This document shows positions 36,901 through 52,251 of a stretch of 64,000 nucleotides of DNA, one piece after another. A program made the position numbers and the translations under genes. The stretch is taken from positions 62,001 to 126,000 of the forward strand of contig JAKSLG010000001.1 of assembly GCA_024401295.1 (NCBI GenBank), read 5' to 3'. Numbering within the stretch: the stretch's first letter is position 1; each line of letters opens with the position of its first letter. The stretch is from Bacteroidales bacterium. GTDB taxonomy: Bacteria; Bacteroidota; Bacteroidia; Bacteroidales; Marinilabiliaceae. The notes beneath the pieces are model-generated. The model had not been told where the DNA came from and did not search any database. It was given only the letters and a program-made list of their open reading frames with translations.

Positions 36901-37094
36901 AGGCGGCTTGTCACTTCGGATTCGACAATTTTCGACGTTGCATTGCGCATCGAATACGACACGCTTATCGACTGCATCTTCTCTGAAGGCGACAGCTTGA
37001 GCGGAAGCAATGGCAACAGCGCCGCGCCAATGATGGAGAGGCAGATGGCAATGACGACAATGGTGAATGGCGATATGGATGTCTTGTTTGTCAT
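33972..37094 (-). CDS. RND-family efflux permease (second pump of the operon)
   Basis: 1040 residues with the RND layout: a first helix (FTIVVIAICLSIIGAALLPL), a large periplasmic loop, a cluster of five helices, helix 7, a second loop and the final helix cluster. In TM4 the usual acidic pair is a single Asp (LNLIIDNTIIMYDHW), so proton coupling differs from AcrB-type DD pumps. The N-terminus lacks the strict FIxRP start seen in the partner pump. It overlaps the TolC-type gene by 4 bases (ATGA). It probably works with the operon's one adaptor and one outer-membrane channel; substrates are unknown. Confidence 0.88.
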   Translation of the reverse strand: MTNKTSISPFTIVVIAICLSIIGAALLPLLPLKLSPSEKMQSISVSYSMRNATSKIVESEVTSRLEALFARVKGIEDLSSTSGNGYGNVRMTFDKHTDIEAARFEIATIIRQAWTELPDGVSFPSIYVNSSDDNAQRPFLVYTINSLSKASEIQQKAEDVFKTGFADISGISSVDIYGAEPMEWQLTYDIDKLQHLGITEQNLSDAIGKYRYTATAGRYIIKTGIDDSSLCLSDIYVELPDSSYIGLDRLVEMKYVEARPNQYFRINGLNSIYISLRAADNANQMALQKECKRRIEELKGNLPSGYELHKTYDATEYIEAELDKIYLRSGLTILILLIFIALTTLNWRSVFVVICSLTCNLAVAIIAYYLLGVELQIYSLAGITISLNLIIDNTIIMYDHWRREHNLSAILPIIAATLTTVGALSIVFFLDDKLKLNLYDFSVVMIVNLTISIFTAMWLVPSLMQLCGEKENNANEPKHRRLTTLLTNAYSAVVRFVCRFKTYFIILAVLGFGLPLFLLPKEINSDSIGAKIYNNTLGTKVYQESIRPITDIVLGGSLRLFIEKIYNGSYWSNSNEVILYVNATLPYGSTIEQMDIITRRMESYLSQFEEIRQFQTQIYSGQESQISIYFTSQAQHSAFPYVLKSNIISKALQLGGGSWAVYGLPDNGFSNDVRQNSGSYTMEMLGYNYETLSQWADSVKQHLLTHKRIKEVEINSSVRYYKDDYVEYHLVPNTEYMAHQNITTVQLFYALNHIFVNDVQCGVVWNGPNSEAIKLRTRQSHEYDIWALLNTPVEFNNRQYKISQLCSFEKTQAPQSIEKINQQYRLCLQYDYIGSSLVGDRVSHAADSTYNARMPIGYKIKYDRNQWYWSNESSHQYLLLGLVIAIIFFITSILFNSLRLPFIIIGIIPISYIGLFLTFYLFGINFDQGGFAALVLLCGITVNANIYIVNESVKQKNLHKCSSHEAFMQAFTIKIVPIMLTILSTILGFIPFLIGGAKEGIWFPLAAGTIGGLVFSIIGITIFLPILYIRDKRRTRRQTA

Positions 37095-38572
37095 CGCAGA
37101 TTGTTGAAGTCAAAGATATCCGACAATGACTCGTTGAGCTGGAAATCGTAGAGCGTCTGCTTGCGAAGGTCATAGTAGCAGACCCAATAGTTGCGCATGC
37201 TTTCGAGATAGCCGTTCTGCGCATTCAGCAGTCGTTGCTGCGACTGCGAGAGTGCTGTGATGTCGCACGTGCCGTTGAGAAATCGCGCCGTGTTCTCCTT
37301 ATAGACTTGCTCGGCCAGGATAAGCGCCTCTTCTGCGCTCTCGATGAGGTTGACTCTCGACTGCAATTCGTCGATGGTGACTATGACATCCTGTTCGAGT
37401 TCCATGATCTTCTGCTGTGCATCAATCTTGGCAACGTTGAGGTTGTTTGTCGCATTGTTGCGCATTCCTCGTCCGACGCCCCAGTCGAGCAGCGGAATGG
37501 TGAGCGACACCGCAACGACATCTTTGCGCATCGGGTCGGAATATGAGTCGCCCAGCTTTTCGGCCTGCTGGTTGAAACCCACGCTGGCATTGACCGTCGC
37601 GTTGAATCGTGTCGATTTCTTGACCCTGTCGAGCTGTTTCTCGGCCTCGGTGACGGTCTGCATCTTTTCGAGAATCAGATAGCTGTTCTTGTGCATCATC
37701 TGAAGGGCCATGTTCGGGTCGATGCTGATCGGCGAAGGACGACCAGGCAGAATGATGTCGATGTCCGTATTGCGGTCGATGCCAAGAAACGATGTGAGAT
37801 TGAGCGAAGCGCGTTTCATTGCTACTTCGGCCGTCGTTATGGAGTTGCGTGCGTTGACGACATCGAGGCGCAGCGAAAGAAGGTCCGACTTGTTTATTGC
37901 TGCAATCTTGTATTTGCGTTCGCCAATCACCAGAAGCGAGTCGCACGAGGCCGCCTGCTCCTTTGCCAGCTTATATTGCGACTGAGCCTGAGCAAGTGCG
38001 AAGAAGTAGTTTACGGCATACGAAGCGATGCCTTCGGTATTGTAGAGGAATTCGAGTTTCGCCTTTTCGTATTTCATCGGCTCAATCTTCTTGTCCCATT
38101 TGAATTCGTTGAATCCCAGCATGTTGTGGCGATAGCCTACGATAAACGGAACCGATGAGAACTGATTATAGGTCGAAGCACCGAAATAGCGCAGGTAGTC
38201 GAGACTTGTCTCGACGAAGAATGAACCGCCGATCGGGTCGAAATTCTGTGTGAGCGACAATGCTCCTGAAGCTGAATATGAACGCTGTTCGCGATACACG
38301 TCCATGTCGGAGTTCGAATCGTAGCGCGAGATGAGGCTGCGGTTATATGTTGCCGGATTCAGGTTGAGCGTGAGCGACGGCTTGCGCTGAGCCTTGAAAC
38401 TGCGATAGTTCCAATAGTCGGCCAGATACATGTTCTTGTTCCTGAAAGCCGTCAGCGAGCTGTCCGAAGCCATCGCGATCACTCTCTGCAGGTCGAGAGT
38501 GATATGCTGGTTCTGTGCCAATGACGGCATTATTGCCATGATTATCAGCAGTATGGAAAGAAAAGGTCTCAT
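37091..38572 (-). CDS. TolC-family outer-membrane efflux protein
   Basis: 493 residues from MRPFLSILLI; an in-frame TTG lies 9 bases upstream. A cleavable signal peptide (LSILLIIMAIMPSLAQNQ) is followed by two OEP repeats of long amphipathic helices, such as ALAQAQSQYKLAKEQAASC and TALSQSQQRLLNAQNGYLES. It forms the outer-membrane and periplasmic channel of a tripartite efflux system. It sits between the two RND genes: 9 bases after the first and overlapping the second. Confidence 0.9.
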   Translation of the reverse strand: MRPFLSILLIIMAIMPSLAQNQHITLDLQRVIAMASDSSLTAFRNKNMYLADYWNYRSFKAQRKPSLTLNLNPATYNRSLISRYDSNSDMDVYREQRSYSASGALSLTQNFDPIGGSFFVETSLDYLRYFGASTYNQFSSVPFIVGYRHNMLGFNEFKWDKKIEPMKYEKAKLEFLYNTEGIASYAVNYFFALAQAQSQYKLAKEQAASCDSLLVIGERKYKIAAINKSDLLSLRLDVVNARNSITTAEVAMKRASLNLTSFLGIDRNTDIDIILPGRPSPISIDPNMALQMMHKNSYLILEKMQTVTEAEKQLDRVKKSTRFNATVNASVGFNQQAEKLGDSYSDPMRKDVVAVSLTIPLLDWGVGRGMRNNATNNLNVAKIDAQQKIMELEQDVIVTIDELQSRVNLIESAEEALILAEQVYKENTARFLNGTCDITALSQSQQRLLNAQNGYLESMRNYWVCYYDLRKQTLYDFQLNESLSDIFDFNNLR

Positions 38573-38581
38573 TGCGTGCAA

Positions 38582-41608: not shown

Positions 41609-42658
41609 TTAATAGTTGATCTCGCTGTTGTGAGCAAGGAATGTGTTGCCCGAAACAACAATGGTGTCGCCCTCCTGAATGTCGCTGCATTCAATGGCAA
41701 CCATCTCGCTGTTCTCTGTCGATGTCTCGACATAGCACCATTGTGCCTGACCATTCTTGGCTTTGAAAACTACGGGCTTGTTCGAGCGCATGACAACGGC
41801 CCCCTTCGGAACGGCCATGCAGATGCCGGCCTCCTGACGTATGCGCACGCTGATGTTCGTGCCCTCAAAGAGTCCCGTAGCATTCGCAATCCTCGCTTTT
41901 ATCTTGACCATGCCGTTGCTTTCGACATAGGGATTGATCTCGCTGACTACGCCCGACCATATCTTCCCAGGCATGGCAAATGCGCTTATCTCTACCGGCT
42001 CGCCTACTTTCACCATCGGCAATTCATTCTCGATGATGCTGAATTCGGCGGTCATCGTGTTCATGTCTATGATGCGGCAGAATGGCTTGTTCCTGTTCGC
42101 TTTGTTGCTCGCCATGTCGCTCTGGTTCGCCACAACACCGCCGATTGGCGCCTTCAAGACGCAATGCTCATAATCATATTGCGCAGACAGATAAGATGCT
42201 CTCGACTGCATGTAACCGCTCTTTATCTCGGCCAGACGACGAACATTTTCGGGTATGCTGTCGGCCTCCGGATCATACCCCTGACCGATAATCGTCTCAT
42301 ACATCGACAGTCGGGCACGCTCCATCTCCGCCTTCGCCGATTCAAGCGCATTCTTCGGACGAAACGACTCAACCTGAGCCAGAACCTCACCCGCACCTAC
42401 ATACTTGCCGTTGCAGACGGAAACAGACGCTATCGTCCCATCTACTTCCCAATAGACATCGGCATACTTGCCTGCCGATACCTTGCCGTTGCTCACTATC
42501 TCATTGTTGAATGGCGCCTTGCGAACAACATCGACAACTACCGTCGGACGGTCTTCAACCAACACGTTCTGCTGCTTGTCTTCGTCGCTGCTCTTCTTTT
42601 CCCCGCCGCACGAGGCAAGGACGAACATTGCTGACAAATAAACGAATCTGTATCTCAT
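41609..42658 (-). CDS. RND efflux periplasmic adaptor (membrane fusion protein)
   Basis: 349 residues from MRYRFVYLSA. The lipoprotein signal ends in FVLASCGGEKK. The body shows the adaptor order: beta-barrel start (VVVDVVRKAPFNNEIVSNGK), lipoyl half (VSVCNGKYVGAGEVLAQV), helical hairpin (residues ~90-150), second lipoyl half (LKAPIGGVVANQS), and membrane-proximal barrel (GDTIVVSGNTFL). It joins the RND pump to the TolC-type channel. It is first in a four-gene efflux operon. A -7 element TATATTTG (42693-42686) lies ~30 bases upstream, inside the tail of the preceding fragment's 3' flank. Confidence 0.92.
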   Translation of the reverse strand: MRYRFVYLSAMFVLASCGGEKKSSDEDKQQNVLVEDRPTVVVDVVRKAPFNNEIVSNGKVSAGKYADVYWEVDGTIASVSVCNGKYVGAGEVLAQVESFRPKNALESAKAEMERARLSMYETIIGQGYDPEADSIPENVRRLAEIKSGYMQSRASYLSAQYDYEHCVLKAPIGGVVANQSDMASNKANRNKPFCRIIDMNTMTAEFSIIENELPMVKVGEPVEISAFAMPGKIWSGVVSEINPYVESNGMVKIKARIANATGLFEGTNISVRIRQEAGICMAVPKGAVVMRSNKPVVFKAKNGQAQWCYVETSTENSEMVAIECSDIQEGDTIVVSGNTFLAHNSEINY

Positions 42659-42685
42659 GATAAGGTCGGTGTTTATATACATGTG

Positions 42686-42693
42686 CAAATATA
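42686..42693 (-). promoter_or_regulatory. -7 element of the efflux operon
   Basis: TATATTTG on the minus strand, 28 bases before the adaptor ATG; no -33 TTG at normal spacing. Confidence 0.45.
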
Positions 42694-42699
42694 ACATTT

Positions 42700-43116
42700 T
42701 TATTCTATTCTGGTCTTTTCCTTAATCTCGCGTGTCGCATCCGATTCAACTTTCCATTTGTGATTGAGAATGATATCGGCTTCAGCTTTCCGCTTTTTCT
42801 CGTTGTCATAGTCTTTTTCTGAATAGAGTTGATAAAGCAGATAATGTGGATAAATACGCTCAGGCAATCTGTCTGTCGAACGTTGGAAATATGTCTCTGC
42901 CTCAGCATAATTGCCCATTGCACGATAGTTCTTCCCAATGATGTTGAGAACCATTGGGTCACACGTCCGACGTATTGCCTCGGACATGATGCGGTTCGAC
43001 TCGCCATACTCCCCATTGCAATGAAGACTGTGACCATATTCATACAGAAAACGCCCGTTCCACTTCATCTTTTCATAAATCTTCTCATATGCAGCACAGC
43101 AATATGTATTTTCATT
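42700..43116 (-). pseudogene. C-terminal TPR fragment of an O-antigen-ligase-like (Wzy_C) gene
   Basis: The open frame starts within the stop region of the preceding DUF4221 gene (overlap 43112-43116), reads NENTYCCAAYEKIYEKMKWN with no early start codon, and then gives two TPR-like helices: RFLYEYGHSLHCNGEYGES and GKNYRAMGNYAEAETYFQRS. An internal ATG at 43068 could give 122 residues. From memory, this segment (LYEYG, SCDPM-like TCDPMVLNIIGKNY, LPERIYPHYLLYQLY) is the conserved C-terminal tail of membrane O-antigen-ligase-family proteins that accompany NVEAL/propeller genes in Bacteroides. The membrane part is absent, so I read it as a deletion remnant. It could still be expressed as a small TPR protein. 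Confidence 0.5.
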
Positions 43117-44251
43117 TCAATTCAAATAAATCAAAGTTAATGGCGTCTTCTTCGAATCCAGCATTCTCTACGTTGTTTGTAGAGATCCAAAGACCGGCTT
43201 CGTTGATGAAGAACATGTTTATGTTATAGATTTTTTCTGGCATGAGAGTTTCGCCGATCACTTTGAAATCCTTATCGATAACCATAATTGAGAATATCCT
43301 TTTGAATTCACCAAGCATAAGGACATCATCCTCGGGAGTTACATCAATACCCGGATACACCATGCGATAATAAACATCACGATATTTGTCGTATAACAGG
43401 ACACGATATTGAGGATGTTTGATATATTCTGTTTGACTTGCTATGAGGTCTGCCGGTGCAACTTTGTGATTGTCGAAATCCCTTTCTATGTAGCGGCTTC
43501 GTATGTCGTGGACAGTCCATGTCGTGTCTTGGTGAACAAATATCTGATGACTCTCAGCGAATGACAATATGTATTTGTTGTCATTTATGACAATGCTATT
43601 TACAGAAGGATACATATTTCTAATGTCAGGATAATGGATTCTTTCATTATAGAAACTGTCTCTTTTCATGTCGTAACAATACCCTATGCTATATTCGTGT
43701 ATGCTTTTGAAATAATCGTATTCATCCCTGTATTCGTTACCAGTAAATATCTTGTTATTATGCATGTAAACATTTTTCCCAAGACTTGACCAGAAAGCTG
43801 GCGGCAAAGCGATGAAAGGTTTTTCATTAAACACTATTGGTATCGTTTTTTTTAGATGGGCATCACTATCTATTATGTAGTATCTGTTGCCGAATCCATT
43901 TACAGAAACAAATATTGTATCTAGATTCACAATATCAAATCCCATCATTCTTCCATTTAACCCGTTAGGCCCTTGAATTTGAGGCACTACATCTTTGATA
44001 TGTGAGCAATCTGAGATCTTATAAATGGATATGGTAGAGGTTGTCTGCCCGTTTTCTACAGCAAGATATCCTTCGCCATTGTCCTCAAAATAGCGTATGT
44101 TTCTGCTCGTGGAATTTGACGTTGAAGGTATAGGAATCCTTAATGACTGTCCACTTCGCTCTAGACGTATTTCTTTATGTGTTTCTGACGATGTGCATCC
44201 AACCACCATAATAGTAGTAAGAATGCAAAGAATAACCCCAATATATTTCAT
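43112..44251 (-). CDS. DUF4221/TolB-like six-bladed propeller lipoprotein
   Basis: 379 residues from MKYIGVILCI, with lipobox MVVGCTSSE. The upstream in-frame starts fall in the hairpin region and are rejected. The body is made of beta-strand repeats (YYIIDSDAHLKKTIPIV, KYILSFAESHQIFVHQD) and ends in the family-typical segment INMFFINEAGLWISTNNVEN followed by FEEDAINFDLFELK. Proteins of this type are surface- or periplasm-facing lipoproteins of unknown function next to NVEAL genes. It is preceded by a perfect 15-bp hairpin 15 bases before the start. It is a paralogue of the gene at 46611-47792. Confidence 0.75.
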   Translation of the reverse strand: MKYIGVILCILTTIMVVGCTSSETHKEIRLERSGQSLRIPIPSTSNSTSRNIRYFEDNGEGYLAVENGQTTSTISIYKISDCSHIKDVVPQIQGPNGLNGRMMGFDIVNLDTIFVSVNGFGNRYYIIDSDAHLKKTIPIVFNEKPFIALPPAFWSSLGKNVYMHNNKIFTGNEYRDEYDYFKSIHEYSIGYCYDMKRDSFYNERIHYPDIRNMYPSVNSIVINDNKYILSFAESHQIFVHQDTTWTVHDIRSRYIERDFDNHKVAPADLIASQTEYIKHPQYRVLLYDKYRDVYYRMVYPGIDVTPEDDVLMLGEFKRIFSIMVIDKDFKVIGETLMPEKIYNINMFFINEAGLWISTNNVENAGFEEDAINFDLFELK

Positions 44252-44265
44252 AGTAAGATGTTTTA

Positions 44266-44300
44266 ACATATCGTGGTATTGTAAAAATACCACGATATGT
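44266..44300 (-). other. Perfect 15-bp RNA hairpin in the leader of the DUF4221 gene
   Basis: ACATATCGTGGTATT (266-280) and its exact complement AATACCACGATATGT (286-300) with a 5-base loop. It ends 15 bases before the ATG at 44251 and is not followed by a T run on the minus strand, so it is not a plain terminator. Confidence 0.75.
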
Positions 44301-44433
44301 AGGTTACATGCTAGTTCCAAAATACGCACAATATTTTTTAATTTTTCTCTCTTTTCGTGTATTTTTTTCTCCCTTTTCCCTCATTTCTCCGGCAAATTGA
44401 CATGAGATTATCAAAGTCGTAAATATCGAAGGT

Positions 44434-45582
44434 CTATTCATTTGAAAACTCCTTCAGGGTGTACAAAATCAAGAAAGGGTTATCATCATCTTGCATTGAT
44501 TCAAGAGTGTTTATATCATGTTCGGAGATATACTCACTACTTTCCAAACTCCCTTTTGGATACCTCATTGGCCAATCCAAAGTTATTATGGTGTCTTGGT
44601 ATGTATTCATTGCTGTATATATTCCTATTATTTCATTGTTTTTCCATCCAATGTTTTTTCCTCCTTTGACTACGCCAGTCCTCTTGTCTGTAAATGTCAA
44701 ATATGTATGTTCCGAATCGTGCAATTTCATAATATTGTGATTCTTTGTTTCCATATATTCGCACATGTGAAATATACCTTGTATTTCTCTTTTGTTGTTG
44801 ATATTCTCTTTGTTTACGACAGCTTTGTCTTTGTAATCTAATACATAAAGAGCCTTTAGCTCTCCATTAGAGTAATTGTATATTGTATCAGAACCAGGAA
44901 TGCTCAATGTATATGAACCGTCGCTATTGTTTATAACTGTGGACATCGCTAAATAGTTTGTTTGATTTCTCAACATAAAACCGATTGTGTTGAAATTTTT
45001 ATCTGTTATTTCAATAGCATAGTTATCATTGTCGTTTAAGTCTCTTTTGTATCCAGCTCCGCGCAATAACATGTAGCCATCCGTCGTCGAAATCGCTCCA
45101 AACGTGCCGTTTTGTAAATAATATGAGTTGACAAAATTCAGATTCTTATCGAGAATTGTTATTCGAGGATTATCGACTACGATAACCTGATTATTGATTT
45201 TGTCATAGCTGATATTGCATATGTGTAATATCTCTTCAGGACCTTGACCCATTTTTGCTCGATTTATGAATTTGCCATTTTTGTCAAAGCAAATGAGTCC
45301 TCCATAATTTATTCCATCCCAGATGTAAATTCGTTCGTTGGTGTAATATATGTCAAAAATTGGCTCATGAATCAATGATTCATCATTGGTTTCAAGCGGA
45401 ATGATTTTGACATCGTTGATGAATTCGCTTTCATCGCATATTGTTGAGCTTATAGCATCATTTAAGTTCAATTTTATAATGCCATCATTGCTACTATTTA
45501 TAATATGCCCAGTAGGTTTTCTGGAACAACTGATTGTACATACGGCTATCGTTAGAAATGTTCCTAATATTGTGTATCTCAT
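44434..45582 (-). CDS. Six-bladed beta-propeller lipoprotein (DUF5128/PF17170 type)
   Basis: 382 residues. Lipoprotein signal FLTIAVCTISCSRKP, then the family signature: DVKIIPLETNDESLIHEP, ICFDKNGKFINRAKMGQGPE, YDKINNQVIVVDNPRITILD, and a C-terminal DNPFLILYTLKEF. The pattern of NHL/6-bladed propeller blades repeats about every 45-50 residues. It is closest in sequence style to the gene at 49395-50546 (same C-terminus NPFL-IYTLKEF). Its start is 72 bases after the NVEAL peptide gene, with a 19-bp hairpin between. The function is unknown; members are lipid-anchored and accompany NVEAL peptides. Confidence 0.82.
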   Translation of the reverse strand: MRYTILGTFLTIAVCTISCSRKPTGHIINSSNDGIIKLNLNDAISSTICDESEFINDVKIIPLETNDESLIHEPIFDIYYTNERIYIWDGINYGGLICFDKNGKFINRAKMGQGPEEILHICNISYDKINNQVIVVDNPRITILDKNLNFVNSYYLQNGTFGAISTTDGYMLLRGAGYKRDLNDNDNYAIEITDKNFNTIGFMLRNQTNYLAMSTVINNSDGSYTLSIPGSDTIYNYSNGELKALYVLDYKDKAVVNKENINNKREIQGIFHMCEYMETKNHNIMKLHDSEHTYLTFTDKRTGVVKGGKNIGWKNNEIIGIYTAMNTYQDTIITLDWPMRYPKGSLESSEYISEHDINTLESMQDDDNPFLILYTLKEFSNE

Positions 45583-45598
45583 CTTTTACTTTAATGCC

Positions 45599-45644: not shown

Positions 45645-45653
45645 GATGTTTAA

Positions 45654-46199
45654 TCATTTAAATGTACATCCATAACCAGTACAACATTTATCGCTGTATA
45701 AATTCATGCAGTGGTAGTAGTAACTAGAAGTAACAGTCGCAGTGCTGTACTGAACGCTCCAGTTGTTTTCACTTGAATATGCCTGTGATACGCCATAATC
45801 ATCAGCAACAAAATTAACACTAAGTTGTTGTCCATTAGTATATTGGGTCGCATGCCCAATAGACACGGTTGTTCCGCTCTGGTTTGATGTCGTCTGTTGC
45901 CATTGTGGACCAGTTGTGTATCCATCATAATAGCTCTCTGCATAGGATGCAGGGTTGCAGTTGTTATAAATCATCTGTTGTACAGTTACAGCACCAGTGT
46001 AATTGTTGGTTATTGTAGAAATGCCGTAACCACAACCATTATATCCGCCGAGACTGATTGTATACGGGAATTCTCGTTGTGCCAACGCTTCGACATTGTC
46101 CAACTTGAGATCCGACATTGTTGTGTTTCCATTCAAGGAAGCGACAACATTCACAGCAGCTACAATAGCGATAGCCACCATTCCAAAAATCTTCTTCAT
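45654..46199 (-). CDS. NVEAL-domain exported protein (long form)
   Basis: 181 residues. The leader MKKIFGMVAIAIVAAVNVVA is almost identical to those of the two other NVEAL genes here. The NVEAL motif is LKLDNVEALAQ at residues ~32-42. The rest (~140 residues) is unusual for the family in length: rich in Tyr, Ser, Thr, Asn, Gln and Gly, with six Cys, and ending in DKCCTGYGCTFK. The CC-x-x-Y-x-C end is shared with the peptide at 47843. Family members are small, exported and of unknown function. The upstream ~150 bases are a near copy of those before the gene at 51805. I infer a secreted or surface product with disulfides. Confidence 0.82.
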   Translation of the reverse strand: MKKIFGMVAIAIVAAVNVVASLNGNTTMSDLKLDNVEALAQREFPYTISLGGYNGCGYGISTITNNYTGAVTVQQMIYNNCNPASYAESYYDGYTTGPQWQQTTSNQSGTTVSIGHATQYTNGQQLSVNFVADDYGVSQAYSSENNWSVQYSTATVTSSYYYHCMNLYSDKCCTGYGCTFK

Positions 46200-46351
46200 T
46201 CCTTATAAAGATTTTAGGTTATACTTCTGTTAATTGATTGTTTGCGATGTAAGGCTCCCCATCATCGTATTTCATAGGCATCATTATGTTTGACTTTCAT
46301 TTCTGTTTCCCCAAAGCAATGCTTCGAGTGTTACAAAGTTAATATATTTCT
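46200..46351 (-). repeat. Duplicated promoter/leader, copy 1 (before the long NVEAL gene)
   Basis: About 150 bases nearly identical to 52096-52251, with a 4-base gap and fewer than ten substitutions by eye. It contains a -7 element TAACTTTG (46341-46334), but the sequence at the -33 position differs from copy 2 and has no TTG. It also holds a possible short upstream frame (MPMKYDDGEPYIAN start) ending just before the gene. Confidence 0.85.
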
Positions 46352-46368
46352 ACAGAGATGTAGGTTTT

Positions 46369-46614
46369 TTATTCAGTAGCTTCACCATTAATCGTCATGA
46401 CAATTTGTTTTCCGCCACGGATATCGGCATAAATCTCACGCATGAACTGTTCTGGTCTGTCGGCTTTGAATATGACATTAACAATCGCTTTCCCGCGAGG
46501 TTCAATATCTGGCATTGATATCATTTTGTGACAAATTTCTTGTGTATGTTCCTTATATGATAGAGAACAAGAAGTACAGAAATATATTAATGCCAATGCT
46601 ATTAAAGGTTTCAT
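46369..46614 (-). CDS. Shortened DUF1573-like lipoprotein
   Basis: 81 residues. Lipoprotein signal ALIYFCTSCSLSY, then only the second half of a DUF1573-type Ig-like domain: IEPRGKAIVNVIFKADRPEQ, a strand, and GKQIVMTINGEATE. Full members are about 120-150 residues and carry an ASCGCT motif before this part; that region is missing here. The ATG overlaps the stop of the DUF4221 gene (ATGA). DUF1573 proteins often sit in NVEAL/propeller clusters. It may be a reduced but working lipoprotein or a decaying gene. Confidence 0.6.
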   Translation of the reverse strand: MKPLIALALIYFCTSCSLSYKEHTQEICHKMISMPDIEPRGKAIVNVIFKADRPEQFMREIYADIRGGKQIVMTINGEATE

Positions 46615-47792
46615 TTCTTTTCAAATTTTAAACAACGAAAAACCAGTAAATCTTCACTCATGTCAGTTCGTTCATAATTATTTTCTGACAACCAAAGGCC
46701 TTCCTCATTGACAAAAAACAACATCGGTGCGTAGCGGCCTGACGGAAATCTCGTCTCGCCGATGATGTTGAATTCCGCATCAAGAATTATTATGGAAAAC
46801 TCTTTTCGACAGAAGGATATCTCACTAGGCTCATCCTCTTTTATCTCATTTGAAGCAAAGTGAACAAAGCGATAATATACATTGTTGTGGGGATCATAAA
46901 CCATGTTGCCATAGCGTGGACGTTTAAATCCCCATAAAACAGCCTGATTCATATCATAATTCCTCGGATAACCTTTGTCCGTGATGTTTTTTTCATATCT
47001 GCTTCCAGCATAGAAAGCTGTCAATTTATCATGACTTTTATCCGTAACGTATATGCTGTCATTCTCCAAAAAACCATATATGAATTTTTCATTCCCATAC
47101 ACACGGCTACAGTTTTCTCCATGAACATTATTGTCTTTCTCGTATAGTTTCGGATAGCTGGCTGGGAGGTATGTCAAGGCGCATGTCGCTGTGTCTAGTG
47201 CAGCACATATTGCGCAATCCTTGAATTCAAAATTATTGCCATATGCTCTATCATCAATCCATCGTGTCAGGGGTATGAATTGCATACAGAATATCTTGCC
47301 GTCAATTATTACCAGTGGTTTGTTTATGAATGTCTCTATCGGTGATGACAGAACAACCATTCCATTTTCGTCCGTACCGTGATCAATCACTTTGGTCACG
47401 TTCCCGTCTCTATCGATAAGAAAGTATTTCAGCGTGTTTTTGTTCGCAACGATTATGCTGTCCAAAGACAATACAGCAATGCCTTCTGTATCATACATTT
47501 CGTTACGTCCATCAAGGTAGATGGGTACACTAATTTCTAATTCACTTGTTTGAATATTATAGAAATTAATTGAATGTCGGAAATTGTTCCGGTCATTATG
47601 AATGACGATGTATTTATTCCCTGTTGCTTTGTCAACGTGATATAGCAACGTGCCTGTATAGATATTGGTATTGTCGTCAATGTCGATGCGTATTTGCTTT
47701 TCTGATTCCACCAGTTTTGCTTCGTTGGCAGTTCGTTCTTCAGAACAGGACAAGATGACTAGTGACACAAAAAATGTTATTATTTTTTTCAT
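46611..47792 (-). CDS. DUF4221/TolB-like six-bladed propeller lipoprotein
   Basis: 393 residues from MKKIITFFVS, lipobox VILSCSEER. Beta-propeller-like repeats (KYIVIHNDRNNFRHSINFYN, YFLIDRDGNVTKVIDHG) and the same ending as the paralogue at 43112: PMLFFVNEEGLWLSENNYER then SEDLLVFRCLKF. It is preceded by the NVEAL peptide gene (50-base gap with a hairpin) and overlaps the DUF1573-like gene. It is probably a lipoprotein facing the periplasm or cell surface. The role is unknown; by position it pairs with the peptide. Confidence 0.77.
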   Translation of the reverse strand: MKKIITFFVSLVILSCSEERTANEAKLVESEKQIRIDIDDNTNIYTGTLLYHVDKATGNKYIVIHNDRNNFRHSINFYNIQTSELEISVPIYLDGRNEMYDTEGIAVLSLDSIIVANKNTLKYFLIDRDGNVTKVIDHGTDENGMVVLSSPIETFINKPLVIIDGKIFCMQFIPLTRWIDDRAYGNNFEFKDCAICAALDTATCALTYLPASYPKLYEKDNNVHGENCSRVYGNEKFIYGFLENDSIYVTDKSHDKLTAFYAGSRYEKNITDKGYPRNYDMNQAVLWGFKRPRYGNMVYDPHNNVYYRFVHFASNEIKEDEPSEISFCRKEFSIIILDAEFNIIGETRFPSGRYAPMLFFVNEEGLWLSENNYERTDMSEDLLVFRCLKFEKK

Positions 47793-47810
47793 GTTGCAGA
47801 TGGAAAATAG

Positions 47811-47830
47811 TGGGGAGATGGAACTCCCCA
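47811..47830 (-). other. Hairpin between the second NVEAL gene and the DUF4221 gene
   Basis: TGGGGAG (811-817) pairs with CTCCCCA (824-830), loop of 6, extendable by A/T pairs. It is 13 bases after the NVEAL stop and 19 before the DUF4221 start. Confidence 0.65.
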
Positions 47831-47842
47831 TTATCATTAATA

Positions 47843-48109
47843 TTACCTATTGTGGCAAACATAGTCCGGACAACAACTTCCCTTTGAGTGATAGTTGCAA
47901 TTAGACTTTCGGGGATCTTTTTCTTCAATATCAAAACGACACATTCCATCAGCCGTTTGATTACCATATCCCTCTCCGGCAGCCAAAGCCTCAATGTTCT
48001 CTAGCTGAAGGTCCGACAATTGTGCAGTTCCGTTGAGAGAAGCACGCACGTTCATTGTAGCAGCCAACGCTACAACTGCGATAGCCACCATTCCAAAAAT
48101 CTTCTTCAT
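47843..48109 (-). CDS. NVEAL-domain exported peptide (short form)
   Basis: 88 residues from MKKIFGMVAIAVVALAAT. It has the same leader as the other two NVEAL genes, with ~41 identical bases at the 5' end shared with the gene at 51805. The motif is LQLENIEALAAGE at ~residues 34-46. The core of ~42 residues has five Cys and ends GSCCPDYVCHNR, matching the CC-x-x-Y-x-C end of the long form. It is exported and probably disulfide-bonded; function unknown. It lies 45 bases after a propeller gene and 50 bases before a DUF4221 gene. Confidence 0.82.
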   Translation of the reverse strand: MKKIFGMVAIAVVALAATMNVRASLNGTAQLSDLQLENIEALAAGEGYGNQTADGMCRFDIEEKDPRKSNCNYHSKGSCCPDYVCHNR

Positions 48110-48154
48110 TCTTTCATGTTTTTTAGTTTCAGTCATTTTTTTCAGATAAATGTC

Positions 48155-49303
48155 TTATTCAAACGACTTAAATGAGTATAGGACAAGAACAGGATTTGCC
48201 TCCTCATCCATGTTTTTCAGGAGGTTATAATCTTCGTCAGAGACAAATGGACGTAAAATGTTGATGTTCGTTCCTATTTCTTCAGGGCTCAGTACGTAAA
48301 TGAATCTGTCACCGTAAGAAGTTTCTGGGAAAGCAAAAACGCGGCCTATTTTCCCCAGGTATTCTCTATCTATCTCCATCTTTATCATGTTGCCCGAATC
48401 TTTCTCACGGAAAGCGTAAATAAATAAGCCATCAGCATAATTGTCTATTCTCATAAACTGATGAGTGTCAGATTCATTGTATGTGCAACAAAATGAATAA
48501 CCGCTATGTTCATTTTTGTATTTTGAGAATTCTATGTCATCAGTTTCAAATAGTGTTCTTTCTATTTTTGATGGATAGTTCAGTACGTATTTTGGGACTA
48601 CTTGTGACTTGTTGACGAGATATATTGTATCGCAGAACATATGTGCAACACTTATGCCATCTTTAGTCTCATAGAGATCGGAAGCTGGTGCTATTGTGTT
48701 TTCTTTATTGGAGTAATATGCGGAGTTTTTAATGGCTAATGATTCATCCGTAACATATATTCGATGATAGTTATGTTCTGCTTCGAACTGTTCATCATTT
48801 TGTTTTTCAAGGGTTTTAAAAACATATTCGCCATCATGTATCTTGAAATGGTAAAATGCAAAAAAGTCTTTGTCTTCTATATGTCTCATGTTCTTGTCAA
48901 AAAAGGATAGCCTTCTGTTCTGGCTTACTACAATTTTTTCATTGACAAAGTCGTACGCCATATCATAGGCCTTCACGATTTCTCCAGGTCCTTGTCCCTG
49001 TGAACTTGACACAATCCATTTGCCTTTTTTATCAAATACTTTGATTTGATGCTGCATGTCATACTGGTCGAAAACGATGATTCTGTCATCGGTCACCATC
49101 AACGAATTTATATATCTGATGAAACTGTTTTCGGACGTTTCCAATGGGATAATCTGAACATCAGAGATGTAATTGTGGATGTAAGAGAAATCCTTGACCT
49201 TGTGTGCCCCAGTCAAGTCAATTTTTATGATGTCCGTATCAGAATGTTCATTTCTACAAGAAAACATCATGAATGTGATTGCGATTAAAATCCAGTTTTT
49301 CAT
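48155..49303 (-). CDS. Six-bladed beta-propeller lipoprotein (DUF5128 type)
   Basis: 382 residues. Signal with lipobox TFMMFSCRNEH, then the propeller signature ISDVQIIPLETSENSFIRY, QIKVFDKKGKWIVSSSQGQG, PGEIVKAYDMAYDFVNEK and SFFDKNMRHIED, ending in NMDEEANPVLVLYSFKSFE. It is a close paralogue of the gene at 50598: 55 bases at the two 3' ends are identical, silent sites included. A possible -7 (TACTTTTG, 49347-49340) lies ~40 bases upstream, so it may be transcribed separately. It is followed by the short NVEAL gene. Confidence 0.82.
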   Translation of the reverse strand: MKNWILIAITFMMFSCRNEHSDTDIIKIDLTGAHKVKDFSYIHNYISDVQIIPLETSENSFIRYINSLMVTDDRIIVFDQYDMQHQIKVFDKKGKWIVSSSQGQGPGEIVKAYDMAYDFVNEKIVVSQNRRLSFFDKNMRHIEDKDFFAFYHFKIHDGEYVFKTLEKQNDEQFEAEHNYHRIYVTDESLAIKNSAYYSNKENTIAPASDLYETKDGISVAHMFCDTIYLVNKSQVVPKYVLNYPSKIERTLFETDDIEFSKYKNEHSGYSFCCTYNESDTHQFMRIDNYADGLFIYAFREKDSGNMIKMEIDREYLGKIGRVFAFPETSYGDRFIYVLSPEEIGTNINILRPFVSDEDYNLLKNMDEEANPVLVLYSFKSFE

Positions 49304-49394
49304 TTTAATTCTTCTGCTTGATTATTTATTGCTTGTGTGCAAAAGTATATACTTCTCATTTGTGTTTTTCCGTCACTTCAAGATTTCTCGTCTT

Positions 49395-50546
49395 TTAGTC
49401 TTCATCGTCAAACTCCTTCAGGGTGTAAATTGCTAAAAAAGGATTGTCTTCCATATCCAAATCTTCTAAGTGCATACAGTCTTCGTGGGACAACGATGAT
49501 GCATCGGGATTAATGCTGCCCTTGACGTACGACAATGGCTGGATGTAGGATATGAATTTATTTCCATATGTACTTTTGGGAATGCTAATCGAGATTTCTT
49601 TGTCCCTCTCAAATAGCGCGTACAGTCCACCTTTTATAACCTCAGTTTCTTTATCACGAAACAGCGTGCATACACCTTTCGGTGTGGTGAAAACTATAAT
49701 CTGATGACGTGCTGTTTCTGTGTATGTCCCGTCATAGCTATAGACATCCATCTTGTAATTATGCATATAATCCTGCGTTTCGTCGTCGGGGAAATCCGTT
49801 TTTACACTAGAAAAATCAAAAGAGCAAACTGCGGTTAGTTTGTCATCTGTCCACTGATATATTGTATCTTTGTCTGCCAAACTTATGTATATTTGGTTTC
49901 CATTGCTTATCATTTTTGGGGCATATGCTCTTCTTGATTCATATTTGAGGCATAATCCTAAAACATTAAATTCCTTGTCTGTAACGACTAGTGAATAGTC
50001 GTCAAAATCATCAATCTCACTTTTGTGACCAGGACCTTTGCCAAATATATATCCATTTTCTGTCGCCATTACAGTTGTAGCAGGGAAAGGCAGTTTATAG
50101 CTACATTCGTATTTTCCATCTTCATCGAAAACGTACATATACGGATTAAAAACTATAAGTAATCTGTTCGTAAAGTGATCAAAAGAGAACCCGTGAAGTC
50201 CTAATATTTCTCCTGGACCTTGTCCTTTTGATATTCTCTTGATGAACTTTCCATCTTTGTCGAAAATAATTAACCCACCACCCAAATAACTGTCCTCGAT
50301 GTAGTATCGAGTATCACTAGCTACAATATTCATGATAGGACTATGAACCAAACTGTTTTCGTCCGTTTCCAAAAACACCAAGCTAATCGAATCGTAAATA
50401 TCTGATTGCAAATAGTAACTGTTGTCTATTTCGTCATTGAGGTCAAAACTATAGAAACCACTTGAAACATGTGTTTCATGCGAAAACTGTTTCGACGTAC
50501 ATCCTGCAAATAGAAAGGCAAAAACAATATATATTAGCTTTTTCAT
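49395..50546 (-). CDS. Six-bladed beta-propeller lipoprotein (DUF5128 type)
   Basis: 383 residues from MKKLIYIVFAFLFAGCTSKQ, which ends in a clean lipobox AGC; the longer in-frame start is rejected. Propeller signature: DSISLVFLETDENSLVHSP, LIIFDKDGKFIKRISKGQGP, GEILGLHGFSFDHFTNRLL, MYVFDEDGKYECSY, ending in NPFLAIYTLKEFDDED. It is most similar in layout to the gene at 44434. 51 bases separate it from the upstream propeller gene. Confidence 0.82.
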   Translation of the reverse strand: MKKLIYIVFAFLFAGCTSKQFSHETHVSSGFYSFDLNDEIDNSYYLQSDIYDSISLVFLETDENSLVHSPIMNIVASDTRYYIEDSYLGGGLIIFDKDGKFIKRISKGQGPGEILGLHGFSFDHFTNRLLIVFNPYMYVFDEDGKYECSYKLPFPATTVMATENGYIFGKGPGHKSEIDDFDDYSLVVTDKEFNVLGLCLKYESRRAYAPKMISNGNQIYISLADKDTIYQWTDDKLTAVCSFDFSSVKTDFPDDETQDYMHNYKMDVYSYDGTYTETARHQIIVFTTPKGVCTLFRDKETEVIKGGLYALFERDKEISISIPKSTYGNKFISYIQPLSYVKGSINPDASSLSHEDCMHLEDLDMEDNPFLAIYTLKEFDDED

Positions 50547-50597
50547 AAGAGTCCCAACATTAATTTTTTTATATCCGATTGCCAAAAATCTTCTCCA

Positions 50598-51749
50598 TCA
50601 TTCAAATGGCTTAAATGAATACAGAACAAGAACAGGATTTGCCTCCTCATCCATGTTTTTCAGGAGGTTATAATCTTCGTTAGAGACGAGCTCTTGCATC
50701 ATTTTCATGTGGTTTTGCAAATAGTCATATTCTAGGACAGATACGAAATAATCATTAAGTGCTGCTACAGGTAGTCTAAATGGATTCCCTATGGTATTTT
50801 CTCTGTCTACATGGATTTGCTTAGTTCTTTTATTGTTTTTATCCCGATAAGCGATGATTTGTTTCTTGTCTTTGCTGTTATCAATGCGAATAAACTGATG
50901 AGTATCATTTTCGTTATAAATGCCGTTGAAAGCATATCCGCTATGCGAAAATATGTAATCGTTTGCCTCTTCTACACTTAAATCAGCAGGCGGTGGAGCC
51001 AGTTTGTTTGGATATTTCAAAATGTATTTCTGAGATACTTTGTCCTCTGCAATATTGTATATTGTGTCGCATTCGATTTCAACAAACGAAGCACCATCTT
51101 TTGAAATAGCTATGTCAAATGAGGAAACAGAACTTGTTTCTACTTCAAATTTTCTTGCGGCATATTTTATGTTCAATTCACTATCGGTGACAATTATCTC
51201 ATAATCATTATACTCTTCGCCAATGCCTCTATTTGTCTGGCCATTCGCTCTTCTAAAAATATAATTGTCGCCACAAACTTTTAGGTGTACATATCCGAAG
51301 CACTTTTTGTCTTCGATGTATTTGAGATTTTTGTCAAATATGCTAACATATCCATTTTGATGAATAATGATTTTCTCGAGTTTCTCATCGTACGCCACAT
51401 CATAGGCTTTCACGATTTCACCCGGACCTTGTCCACGCGAACTTGTTGCAATGACTTTTCCATTTATGTCGAAGACTTTGACTTGCTGTTCCATATTGTA
51501 TTGATCGAAAACAATAATTCGGTCGCTGGAAACAATTAAGGAAGTAACATATCTTATAAAACTATTCTCTGAAGTTTCCAATGGAATGATTTTCAAATCG
51601 GAAATGTCTTTTGTAAACTCAGAGAAGTTTTCAGATTCTTCGACTTCTTCAATGCGTATTTCTTCTATTGATTTGCTGTTGCTTTGAGACTCATTACAAG
51701 ATTCAAGTGCCAATAGCAAAAATGCAAAAATGAAATTAATGTATTTCAT
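50598..51749 (-). CDS. Six-bladed beta-propeller lipoprotein (DUF5128 type)
   Basis: 383 residues. Lipoprotein signal FAFLLLALESCNESQ, then an acidic stretch (IEEIRIEEVEESENFSE), and the propeller signature ISDLKIIPLETSENSFIRY, QVKVFDINGKVIATSSRGQG, PGEIVKAYDVAYDEKLEK, ending NMDEEANPVLVLYSFKPFE. It is a paralogue of the gene at 48155, with 55 identical bases near the 3' end (50626-50680 against 48183-48237). It follows the third NVEAL gene by 55 bases with a hairpin between. Confidence 0.82.
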   Translation of the reverse strand: MKYINFIFAFLLLALESCNESQSNSKSIEEIRIEEVEESENFSEFTKDISDLKIIPLETSENSFIRYVTSLIVSSDRIIVFDQYNMEQQVKVFDINGKVIATSSRGQGPGEIVKAYDVAYDEKLEKIIIHQNGYVSIFDKNLKYIEDKKCFGYVHLKVCGDNYIFRRANGQTNRGIGEEYNDYEIIVTDSELNIKYAARKFEVETSSVSSFDIAISKDGASFVEIECDTIYNIAEDKVSQKYILKYPNKLAPPPADLSVEEANDYIFSHSGYAFNGIYNENDTHQFIRIDNSKDKKQIIAYRDKNNKRTKQIHVDRENTIGNPFRLPVAALNDYFVSVLEYDYLQNHMKMMQELVSNEDYNLLKNMDEEANPVLVLYSFKPFE

Positions 51750-51766
51750 AATATACTAAATTATAA

Positions 51767-51792
51767 AGAGAGTCGGTTGTGCCCGATTCTCT
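51767..51792 (-). other. Hairpin between the third NVEAL gene and the propeller gene
   Basis: AGAGAGTCGG (767-776) pairs with CCGATTCTCT (783-792) with one mismatch and a 6-base loop. On the minus strand it is followed by TTTATAATTTAG, so partial termination is plausible. It is 12 bases after the NVEAL stop. Confidence 0.7.
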
Positions 51793-51804
51793 TGTGTTCG
51801 CAAA

Positions 51805-52095
51805 TTATTTGTTAATGCCTTTCATGACTAAATGGGCGCATACATATGGAGTACAATAGTAATTTCCATCGCTTTCACATACCGTACATTGTGCATTGCA
51901 ATCCTGACAACGTACTGTGATTTTTGTTTTCCAGCAGTCTCTTTTCCCCTTGTACATCGGAATTTCACCATTATCTGCCAAGGATTCAATATTTGCGAAT
52001 CCTAGCTCATTCATGATGCTGGCGCTGTCGAAAGCGGCAACAACATTCACGGCAGCTACAACTGCGATAGCCACCATTCCAAAAATCTTCTTCAT
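51805..52095 (-). CDS. NVEAL-domain exported peptide, cysteine-rich
   Basis: 96 residues. Leader MKKIFGMVAIAVVAAVNVVA, variant motif LGFANIESLADNG at ~residues 31-43, then a core of ~53 residues with seven Cys (KRDCWKTKITVRCQDCNAQC, then TVCESDGNYYCTPYVC). The core ends with a Y-C-x-x-Y-x-C pattern like the other two. It is first in the larger module, driven by the copy-2 promoter/leader, and followed by a hairpin and three propeller genes. The odd Cys count could allow a disulfide to a partner. Function unknown. Confidence 0.82.
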   Translation of the reverse strand: MKKIFGMVAIAVVAAVNVVAAFDSASIMNELGFANIESLADNGEIPMYKGKRDCWKTKITVRCQDCNAQCTVCESDGNYYCTPYVCAHLVMKGINK

Positions 52096-52251
52096 CGTTT
52101 ATAAAGATTTTAGGTTATACTTCTGTTAGTTAAATGCTTGTTTGCGATGTAAGGCTCCCCATCATCGTATTTCATAGGCATCATTATGTTTGACTTTCAT
52201 TTTTGTTTCCCCGAAGCAATGCTCCGAGTGTTACAAAGTTAATATATTTTT
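52096..52251 (-). repeat. Duplicated promoter/leader, copy 2 (before the Cys-rich NVEAL gene)
   Basis: Nearly identical to 46200-46351. It spans from just before the ATG to the -7 element and a few bases beyond; the two copies diverge immediately upstream. It includes a ~130-base untranslated leader. Confidence 0.85.

What the first reader, a model, noticed from the sequence alone, without database searches (positions are those of the whole stretch)
45654..52095. Three NVEAL peptides with fixed leaders and diversified Cys-rich cores
Seen: the three genes (45654-46199, 47843-48109, 51805-52095) share the same N-terminal 16-20 residues (MKKIFGMVAIA...), identical over up to 41 bases at DNA level. 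They also share a spaced L-x-N-[VI]-E-[AS]-L-A motif. After that the cores share almost nothing in sequence or length (about 42, 53 and 140 residues), except a final C-x-x-Y-x-C pattern and 5-7 Cys. Known: NVEAL proteins are a small exported family without a function. Inference: this is a leader/core architecture, with conserved export and processing signal and variable mature product, as in secreted peptide families. The neighbouring propeller lipoproteins would be receptors, carriers or maturation partners.
Basis: partly seen in the sequence, partly recalled or inferred. Interest (0 to 1): 0.8.

Follow-up and report, generated by a model that had tools for sequence, protein, structure and literature searches.

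The report
Payload-swapping secreted peptides of gut Bacteroidales
Three small genes in this window belong to a system, found in many gut bacteria, in which one fixed leader carries interchangeable cysteine-rich peptides, each travelling with its own partner protein, and which probably serves dealings between neighbouring bacteria.

Summary
In detail: three NVEALA (PF14055) genes with a shared leader and unlike Cys-rich cores, each directly followed by a propeller-type gene. Comparison with 247 unique relatives goes further. (1) The motif ends in an AxA-type signal-peptidase-I site; residue -1 is A/G/S/T in 247 of 247. (2) NVEALA loci carry their own signal peptidase: 36 of 37 fall in one clade apart from the housekeeping copies. 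A TlpA-like redox protein, a Wzy_C-TPR protein, a transglutaminase and sometimes a histidine kinase recur. (3) In 119 pairs with alike leaders and unlike cores, DNA identity ends at the cleavage codon (median 0 nt). (4) Core type and downstream propeller travel together even when leaders differ (62 of 65; chance 27). (5) Two P. massiliensis strains, and two B. fragilis records, differ by whole core+propeller modules; a P. vulgatus plasmid carries a cassette. So this is a leader with exchangeable payload and cognate partner, not a fast-mutating core: where propellers are orthologue-like, the core is usually more alike than the leader. The window's copy is reduced (no LepB, transglutaminase or redox gene in the locus; Wzy_C remnant). 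Cleavage, export and antagonism or signalling are inferred. No paper in the library searched mentions NVEAL.

The parts
51805..52095 (-). NVEALA peptide N3; leader 51976-52095 (40 codons, ends ..NIESLA), core 56 aa with 7 Cys
   Evidence: PF14055 E 8.6e-7; cleavage position from the HMM alignment
50598..51749 (-). DUF5128 6-bladed propeller, directly downstream of N3 (its presumed partner)
   Evidence: PF17170 E 4.8e-18
49395..50546 (-). DUF5128 propeller, not directly preceded by an NVEALA gene
   Evidence: PF17170 E 1.4e-30
48155..49303 (-). DUF5128 propeller, not directly preceded by an NVEALA gene
   Evidence: PF17170 E 1.2e-21
47843..48109 (-). NVEALA peptide N2; leader 47981-48109 (43 codons, ends ..NIEALA), core 45 aa with 5 Cys; an in-frame ATG at 48136 is also possible
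   Evidence: PF14055 E 2.3e-12
46611..47792 (-). DUF4221 protein, directly downstream of N2 (presumed partner)
   Evidence: PF13970 E 2.9e-31; solved relative 3s9j E 3.6e-36
46369..46614 (-). 81-aa lipoprotein-like ORF between the DUF4221 gene and N1; weak Ig-like hits only; role unknown
46203..46349 (-). upstream region of N1, 94% identical to that of N3; holds a TAnnTTTG-like element (Bacteroides -7 motif as recalled)
52099..52249 (-). upstream region of N3, repeat of the one above
45654..46199 (-). NVEALA peptide N1; leader 46080-46199 (40 codons, ends ..NVEALA), core 141 aa with 6 Cys
   Evidence: PF14055 E 2.5e-9
44434..45582 (-). DUF5128 propeller, directly downstream of N1 (presumed partner)
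   Evidence: PF17170 E 1.7e-25
43112..44329 (-). DUF4221 protein (GTG start of the ORF list; true start unsure)
   Evidence: PF13970 E 2.2e-22
42700..43068 (-). C-terminal TPR remnant (122 aa) of the Wzy_C-TPR membrane protein of this system
   Evidence: 49% identical to residues 435-557 of the 566-aa protein of L080; A4 model E 2.4e-51
41609..42697 (-). HlyD-type RND adaptor, downstream of the remnant
   Evidence: PF16576 E 5.2e-16; HlyD lies beside the cassette also in L047, L080 and L222
38582..41596 (-). RND pump
   Evidence: PF00873 E 2.3e-154
37091..38581 (-). TolC-like outer membrane efflux protein
   Evidence: PF02321 E 3.5e-29
33972..37094 (-). second RND pump of the same gene run
   Evidence: PF00873 E 2.5e-88

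Best explanation
NVEALA genes are precursors of small, disulfide-bonded secreted peptides made by a modular, partly plasmid-borne system of Bacteroidales. The first about 43 residues are a leader: a membrane-spanning signal segment, then a spacer ending in N-[VI]-E-A-L-A, where the last A-L-A is a signal-peptidase-I (AxA) site. A dedicated LepB-type peptidase encoded in the same cassette cleaves there. A TlpA-like oxidoreductase forms the disulfides, and the Wzy_C-TPR protein, the transglutaminase and (where present) the HlyD-RND-TolC pump modify or export the product. Each core is used together with the propeller protein encoded directly downstream, its cognate partner. The promoter+leader repeat serves as a homology arm, so a new core+propeller unit can be dropped in behind the local leader. 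Copies beside the histidine kinase carry a special two-Cys core and are probably the signal that controls the system. Most likely use, inferred: antagonism between strains, with core as effector and propeller as immunity or binding partner (about 0.4 on its own). Shown by sequence: AxA site, dedicated peptidase clade, leader/core border of DNA identity, core-propeller coupling, module differences between strains, plasmid carriage. Inferred: cleavage, oxidation, export, recombination as the route, function.
For: Residue -1 is A236, G4, S4, T3 of 247 and -3 is A in 230 of 247; in an HMM alignment made without a regex A87 S3 G3 T3 and one gap of 97 rows. Variant leaders, read by eye, keep a small-residue site while NVE is lost: IAQA, VAMA, VMAQA, TYA/TYG. 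Cys counts are even in 205, odd in 38, zero in 4 of 247. Next same-strand gene (unlabelled ORFs under 90 aa skipped): propeller 196, another NVEALA 20, contig edge 9, other 22 of 247. LepB: 36 of 37 from NVEALA loci lie in one 100/99 clade of 40 in a tree of 62; the Ser and Lys that I take for the catalytic pair are kept in 35 and 37 of 37. CxxC in 73 of 81 redox proteins. NVEALA model (E<=1e-5) in 33 and Wzy_C-TPR in 46 of 392 order genomes, both in 26, Fisher p 5.8e-22. Identity break: 119 pairs, median 0 nt. Identical codons in leaders: 71.2% within a locus, 39.1% expected, 47.6% between loci. Nearest core of another locus with an unlike leader: its propeller is the best match in that locus in 62 of 65 (chance 27.3); 22 of 22 (chance 10.3) without two-Cys cores and among siblings of one propeller family (core similarity 0.25 or more, results alike at 0.30 and 0.35). 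Strain and plasmid evidence. HK-adjacent cores: 21 of 23 have two Cys against 66 of 224 others.
Against: No protein was seen cleaved or secreted. The spacer between hydrophobic segment and site (median 23 residues in the 86 of 97 rows measured) is longer than I recall for ordinary signal peptides. The window's locus lacks LepB, transglutaminase and redox genes and keeps only a Wzy_C remnant; its held genome shows the housekeeping LepB pair plus one weak 162-aa hit and no transglutaminase match, though it is 75% complete. Seven of the 33 NVEALA genomes lack the Wzy_C match and 20 of 46 Wzy_C genomes lack NVEALA; of 12 such genomes looked at, 3 showed an NVEALA-like or variant peptide gene near Wzy_C and 9 did not, so Wzy_C and transglutaminase may have other uses. 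No pump gene is in the 24-kb plasmid stretches shown, and HlyD is in 15 of 66 long loci. The 119 pairs were chosen for leader identity over the last 75 nt, so an earlier break was excluded by design; only the lack of identity beyond the site is free evidence. Upstream DNA was 93-100% alike in 5 of 43 within-locus pairs, lower in the rest. A within-locus, within-family permutation without two-Cys pairs was not significant (z 0.9, 386 of 2000). One LepB of an NVEALA locus (L073) falls outside the clade. 132 of 321 propellers have no NVEALA directly upstream. A crude lipobox search fitted 102 of 183 TolB-like and 54 of 117 DUF5128 proteins, and acidic residues after the Cys were rare (11 and 2), so surface display is not shown. 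No toxin domain is known in a core.
Confidence: 0.55

Rival explanations
1. Every NVEALA peptide is a signal (pheromone) and the propeller its specific binding or receptor protein; the arrays are private communication channels, not weapons.
For: Histidine kinase genes stand divergent to 23 of 247 NVEALA genes, and those cores form one conserved two-Cys class. Cores are conserved between orthologue-like pairs. Core and propeller co-travel.
Against: Only that class sits with a kinase; the other 224 were not scored as divergent from one (contig edges included). One region holds nine tandem peptides (L077), many for separate signals.
Confidence: 0.22
2. The cores are structural or ligand-binding small subunits that assemble with their propeller in a cell-envelope complex (nutrient or mucin binding), perhaps glycosylated by the Wzy_C protein or cross-linked by the transglutaminase.
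For: Coupling of core and propeller; Wzy_C (PF04932) and transglutaminase (PF01841) as recurrent partners, also in genomes where no NVEALA gene was seen nearby; similarity of the transglutaminase protein's C-terminal part to carbohydrate-binding modules (5g56 E 4.9e-7, 2yb7 E 9.3e-7).
Against: No glycan-degrading or glycan-uptake gene was among the ten recurrent families scanned. Module differences between strains and plasmid carriage fit conflict or communication better, though surface structures also vary in this way.
Confidence: 0.18
3. The sharp leader/core border reflects only selection on the leader: NVEALA must be kept, the rest drifts freely, and no recombination is involved.
For: The motif itself is under strong protein-level constraint, and the pairs were chosen for alike leaders.
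Against: Synonymous identity of leaders within a locus is far above codon-usage expectation (71.2% against 39.1%) and above pairs from different loci (47.6%). Non-coding upstream DNA is 93-100% identical in 5 of the 43 within-locus pairs listed. Whole modules are moved or missing between two strains in blocks of about 99% identity. Orthologue-like cores do not drift.
Confidence: 0.05
4. NVEALA proteins stay uncleaved in the inner membrane as small membrane proteins with variable periplasmic tails; the AxA pattern is a coincidence of an amphipathic helix.
For: The long spacer is unusual for signal peptidase I. The window's genome shows no clear dedicated LepB.
Against: Only small residues at -1 in 247 of 247 and a dedicated LepB clade in the same cassettes; variant leaders keep a small-residue site while the rest of the motif changes.
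Confidence: 0.1

Closest known systems
Pfam PF14055 NVEALA family
   Same: The three window proteins score over the cut-off, as do relatives in 23 of 392 order genomes.
   Different: To my knowledge the family has a name but no function. The model also misses variant leaders found here next to the same partner genes (IAQA, VMAQA, VAMA, TYA types).
GG-leader bacteriocins and RiPPs of Bacteroidales with C39 peptidase transporters (bacteroidetocins; PMC10352776, abstract, outline and passages seen)
   Same: Conserved leader, variable short core, gene clusters, same host order.
   Different: Site is A-L-A and not GG; the recurrent peptidase is LepB; no C39 transporter or known RiPP modification enzyme among the ten recurrent neighbour families scanned; a propeller partner instead.
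Polymorphic toxin-immunity systems (recalled)
   Same: Conserved trafficking N-terminus, exchangeable C-terminal payload swapped with the next gene, mosaic break at the border.
   Different: The payload is a peptide of about 40 residues with Cys pairs, no known toxin domain; the partner is a propeller-type protein; no immunity tested.
Peptide-pheromone three-component systems of class II bacteriocins (recalled)
   Same: One conserved peptide class beside a histidine kinase, other peptides nearby.
   Different: Gram-negative host, signal-peptidase-type leader; sensing not shown; not in the window.
B. thetaiotaomicron BT0662-BT0669 (tables in PMC10434189, passages seen)
   Same: O-antigen ligase family protein, hypothetical protein, 6-bladed propeller, lepB and RND adaptor at neighbouring locus tags: the same set of partners in a model strain.
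   Different: Not fetched here; whether BT0663 is an NVEALA gene was not checked; the expression changes listed there were not pursued.

Membership tests
PF14055 NVEALA | score over the curated cut-off of 27 bits | tested here: met
   37.1, 46.8 and 29 bits
Substrate of signal peptidase I | small residues at -1 and -3 of a site after a hydrophobic segment (recalled rule) | tested here: met
   -1 A/G/S/T in 247 of 247; -3 A in 230 of 247
Substrate of signal peptidase I | site a few residues after the hydrophobic segment, as in ordinary signal peptides (recalled) | tested here: not met
   median 23 residues from the most hydrophobic 15-mer to the site
Substrate of signal peptidase I | cleavage observed | not testable with these tools
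   needs N-terminal sequencing or mass spectrometry
GG-leader peptide exported by a C39 peptidase transporter | double-glycine motif before the core | tested here: not met
   -2 L and -1 A dominate (87 and 87 of 97 rows)
GG-leader peptide exported by a C39 peptidase transporter | C39 transporter gene in the cluster | tested here: inconclusive
   none among ten recurrent neighbour families scanned, out of 40 clusters of two or more; 213 singletons were not scanned
RiPP with a known modification enzyme | radical SAM, YcaO or lanthipeptide enzyme beside the precursor | tested here: inconclusive
   none among the ten recurrent families scanned; other clusters and singletons not scanned
Polymorphic toxin-immunity system | conserved N-terminus, variable C-terminus exchanged together with the next gene | tested here: met
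   (in relatives; the window's own N1/N3 pair breaks inside the leader)
Polymorphic toxin-immunity system | toxin domain in the payload | tested here: not met
   no Pfam or NCBIfam hit beyond NVEALA in the three window proteins, nor an NCBIfam hit in two relatives; PADLOC gave one weak hit, to N3; other cores not scanned
Polymorphic toxin-immunity system | next gene protects against the payload | not testable with these tools
   needs expression and competition tests
Peptide-HK-RR three-component system | peptide gene beside HK and RR | tested here: met
   23 of 247 NVEALA genes are divergent from an HK; 23 of 66 long loci hold an HK and 12 an RR of these families; not in the window
Peptide-HK-RR three-component system | kinase responds to the peptide | not testable with these tools
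   needs a reporter experiment

The most novel reading that the evidence does not exclude
A previously undescribed class of mobile peptide system in human-gut Bacteroidales: an extended signal leader with its own signal peptidase acts both as export tag and as homologous-recombination anchor, so that strains trade peptide+propeller modules like cartridges for antagonism or private communication, under control of a dedicated two-Cys pheromone-like copy.
Probability: 0.42. Interest if true: 0.93.

Novelty: new variant of a known kind. Interest (0 to 1): 0.82.

Why it matters
NVEALA genes occur in common gut species (B. fragilis, P. vulgatus, Parabacteroides), and no paper in the library searched names them. 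The evidence here turns an orphan domain into a testable system: a predicted cleavage site, a dedicated peptidase to delete, a paired propeller for most peptides, natural strain pairs that differ by modules, and a plasmid that carries a cassette. If right, it adds a large repertoire of disulfide peptides, with matched partners, to what is known of how Bacteroidales strains compete or talk in the gut.

Tried and rejected
Rejected: fast point divergence of cores (orthologue-like cores conserved). Rejected: GG-type processing (no GG). Rejected as far as Rfam goes: a known RNA element in the shared upstream region (no match at gathering score). Considered: solved structures as hints; DUF4221 has a clear relative (3s9j), the transglutaminase protein a partial one, the DUF5128 and TolB-like queries none useful. 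The pump was first taken as an obligate part; the plasmid stretches shown lack it, so it is now listed as optional. A first -1/-3 count by regex was circular and was replaced by an HMM-alignment count. The NVEALA-by-Wzy_C table uses a cut (E<=1e-5) set after seeing the list; with all 58 NVEALA genomes it is 27 of 58 against 19 of 334 (counted by hand). Literature searches on NVEAL; propeller and Bacteroides; DUF4221, DUF5128, three Pfam accessions and a TolB-like phrase; the B. thetaiotaomicron locus tags; bacteriocin, small-secreted-protein, RiPP and polymorphic-toxin terms; and the partner set gave two papers that I looked into. The five hits on PF14055 (four malaria papers by title) I took from the listing for chance matches to Plasmodium gene ids and did not open.
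Full report
WHAT IS IN THE WINDOW. The three genes exist as described and are PF14055 NVEALA proteins over the curated cut-off. They are the only three over it in the held genome (75% complete). On the minus strand the order is N3, three DUF5128 propellers, N2, a DUF4221 protein, an 81-aa ORF, N1, a DUF5128 propeller, a DUF4221 protein, a 122-aa TPR remnant of a Wzy_C-TPR protein, then HlyD adaptor, RND, TolC-like protein and a second RND. Each NVEALA gene stands directly before a propeller-type gene. N1 and N3 share about 150 nt upstream at 94% identity. The three cores share a C-x-x-Y-x-C tail found in none of the other 244 unique cores.

SURVEY. With the Pfam model 29 of 392 genomes of the window's order (Bacteroidales, judging by its named members) have a hit at E<=1e-3, 23 over the cut-off, the own genome included; in the window's genus 5 of 15; in its family, mostly genomes of at least 90% completeness, 4 of 56, all in that genus. 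I fetched 60 regions around these hits and 74 named loci: B. fragilis, P. vulgatus, B. cellulosilyticus, Parabacteroides and others. The two sets overlap in part. My HMM gives 270 matches there; 266 have the site column filled, 247 of them unique. A broader leader model (A3, built partly from these genomes) hits 58 of 392 at E<=1e-3. I used the 33 at E<=1e-5, a cut set after seeing the list: of the 25 dropped, 19 are shown in the match table, and 15 of those 19 end at model position 38 or earlier, before the motif is complete.

LEADER. In an alignment made without a motif regex, -1 is A87 S3 G3 T3 and one gap of 97 rows, -3 is A81, -4 E91, -6 N89, and an E follows at about +3 in 84. In the 247 unique proteins -1 is A236 G4 S4 T3 and -3 A230. 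This is the residue rule of signal peptidase I (recalled). The site lies a median 23 residues after the most hydrophobic segment (86 of 97 rows measured), more than in an ordinary signal peptide (recalled). Genomes missed by the Pfam model can carry variant leaders before the same propellers, with a small-residue site but without NVE (read by eye): VMAQA in G049 and G050 (L231, L232, L255; one copy in L255 reads MQQA), IAQA in G018 (L242), VAMA in G346 (L243), TYA/TYG in G108 (L251). Of 12 genomes with Wzy_C but no NVEALA match that I looked at, those last three showed such genes and nine did not.

CORE. The core has a median of 40 residues. Cys counts are even in 205, odd in 38 and zero in 4 of 247, as expected of disulfides; the rows are not independent. 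Recognisable core types recur in different genomes with unlike leaders, for example CPNGC..GCYC with TolB-like propellers.

THE CASSETTE. Neighbour clustering gives recurrent partners: TolB-like, DUF5128 and DUF4221 propellers; an AhpC/TlpA-like redox protein; signal peptidase I; a transglutaminase protein; a Wzy_C-TPR protein; a histidine kinase and a response regulator; HlyD (Pfam names). In 66 loci of at least 15 kb: TolB-like 55, redox 48, DUF5128 43, transglutaminase 39, LepB 33, Wzy_C 28, HK 23, HlyD 15, DUF4221 15, RR 12. The next same-strand gene of the 247, unlabelled ORFs under 90 aa skipped, is a propeller in 196, another NVEALA in 20, a contig edge in 9, something else in 22. Conversely 189 of 321 propellers are directly preceded by an NVEALA gene.

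DEDICATED PEPTIDASE. All 17 genomes searched have signal peptidase I. In 13 of them an extra copy, apart from the housekeeping ones, lies on a contig stretch with NVEALA hits (G001, G128, G156, G157, G205, G307, G348, G374, G388, G389, G420, G429, G442); several of these also have further copies elsewhere. In G005 and G407 the extra copy lies elsewhere but beside an NVEALA-like gene found later. G003 and the window's G000 show the housekeeping pair only, G000 with one weak 162-aa hit besides. In a tree of 62 sequences, 36 of 37 LepBs from NVEALA loci share a 100/99 clade of 40; L073 does not. Of the clade's four other members, L188 lies in the NVEALA contig of G389, L179 and L207 beside NVEALA-like genes, and L181 beside two transglutaminase genes. 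The Ser and Lys that I take for the catalytic pair are kept in 35 and 37 of 37.

CO-OCCURRENCE. Wzy_C-TPR (A4, E<=1e-20) is in 46 of 392 order genomes: in 26 of the 33 with NVEALA and in 20 of the other 359 (Fisher p 5.8e-22; genomes counted by hand). With all 58 it is 27 of 58 and 19 of 334.

BORDER. In 119 pairs with the last 75 nt of leader DNA at least 85% alike and unlike cores, the most likely end of identity is a median 0 nt from the cleavage codon (IQR -1 to +2; 78 within 3 nt). Taken as 48 locus pairs, 37 medians lie within -3 to +9. Six further pairs had alike cores and were set aside. The choice of pairs excludes an early break, so what is free evidence is that identity does not run on into the core. 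Constraint on the protein alone does not explain the leaders' likeness: within a locus identical residues use the identical codon in 71.2% against 39.1% expected and 47.6% between loci, and upstream DNA is 93-100% alike in 5 of the 43 within-locus pairs (the others lower). The window's own N1/N3 pair is an exception: it breaks earlier, inside the leader.

COGNATE PAIRS. Leaders are alike within a locus and unlike between loci (median similarity 0.59 against 0.27), while cores (0.11, 0.11) and propellers (0.03, 0.03) show no locus effect. Core and adjacent propeller agree across loci: permutation within loci z 8.7, with unlike leaders z 7.1, also within propeller family z 4.2, each 0 of 2000. 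Without two-Cys pairs the last test is not significant (z 0.9, 386 of 2000). The nearest-core test is clear even then: 22 of 22 against 10.3 by chance, and 62 of 65 against 27.3 without these restrictions.

NATURAL EXCHANGE. Two records titled B. fragilis (Q1F2, L112; S82, L132; kept as separate species in a one-per-species collection) are 90.4% identical up to 15 and 24 nt past the cleavage codon of the second NVEALA gene, then show no blastn match of 60 nt or more through core and propellers, then are 96.4% identical again from inside the redox gene. Two P. massiliensis strains (L144, 20 kb; L259, 40 kb, from a record called a plasmid) share five cores, in blocks 98.6-99.6% identical, while six cores of L259 and two (plus a fragment) of L144 are not in the other stretch; what lies beyond the stretches was not compared. 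One block sits in another order. Two block ends lie 5 and 10 nt after a cleavage codon and some starts lie in the upstream-leader repeat (135 to 206 nt before a site); other ends lie elsewhere. Plasmid pPvulCL10_1 of P. vulgatus carries NVEALA, propeller, redoxin, lepB, O-antigen ligase and transglutaminase genes. pBdorCL06T03-4 of P. dorei carries the same run with transposases in place of most of the redox gene. A B. fragilis plasmid has an NVEALA gene next to a recombinase gene.

CONTROL COPY. 23 NVEALA genes are divergent from the histidine kinase. Their cores have two Cys (21) or three (2), and the next gene is TolB-like in 18; of the other 224 cores 66 have two Cys. I read this class as the signal peptide of the system; this is inference.

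THE WINDOW'S VERSION is reduced: no LepB, transglutaminase or redox gene lies in the locus, no clear dedicated LepB and no transglutaminase match in the held contigs (the redox gene was not searched for genome-wide), and Wzy_C is a C-terminal remnant in the expected place before HlyD. A relative of the same genus keeps the full set (L047); another all but a labelled redox gene (L222). The three genes here may be processed by a housekeeping enzyme or by one in the missing quarter of the genome, or may be on the way out.

LITERATURE. No paper of the library names NVEAL. A Bacteroidales RiPP survey (PMC10352776; abstract, outline and passages seen) describes GG-leader peptides with C39 transporters; its main text has no mention of propeller, signal peptidase, O-antigen or transglutaminase. 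An iron-stimulon paper (PMC10434189; passages seen) lists BT0662 O-antigen ligase, BT0663 hypothetical, BT0664 propeller, BT0667 lepB and BT0669 RND adaptor. The library holds open-licence papers only, so this is no proof of absence.

LIMITS. Gene calls were made by a simple ORF script. Labels of neighbours rest on HMMs built from the same loci. Loci are related to one another, so p-values are guides. Function is not shown.

Noticed in passing
46200-46350 and 52096-52250: The shared upstream repeats hold a TAACTTTG element and a roughly 130-nt stretch before the ATG; no Rfam match in 42000-53000.
   Followed up: partly
42700-43068: Remnant of a Wzy_C-TPR gene where relatives have the intact gene: the locus has lost parts.
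   Followed up: partly
L144:5397-5531 and L144:18398-18550: Truncated NVEALA ORFs (a leader running into a stop; a start inside the leader), which look like scars of module exchange.
   Followed up: no
L077:1658-18543: Nine tandem NVEALA genes in about 17 kb, six of them directly before a labelled propeller gene.
   Followed up: yes
L251:4074-4367 and 5919-6233: Two tandem peptide genes with another conserved leader (..GIEIQLF..TYA/G) and Cys-rich cores, the first directly before a DUF5128 gene: a second leader family outside PF14055.
   Followed up: partly
L258:10788-12294: NVEALA gene after a recombinase-family gene on a mobilizable B. fragilis plasmid.
   Followed up: no
L047:6007-7962: The C-terminal part of the transglutaminase protein resembles carbohydrate-binding modules.
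   Followed up: no
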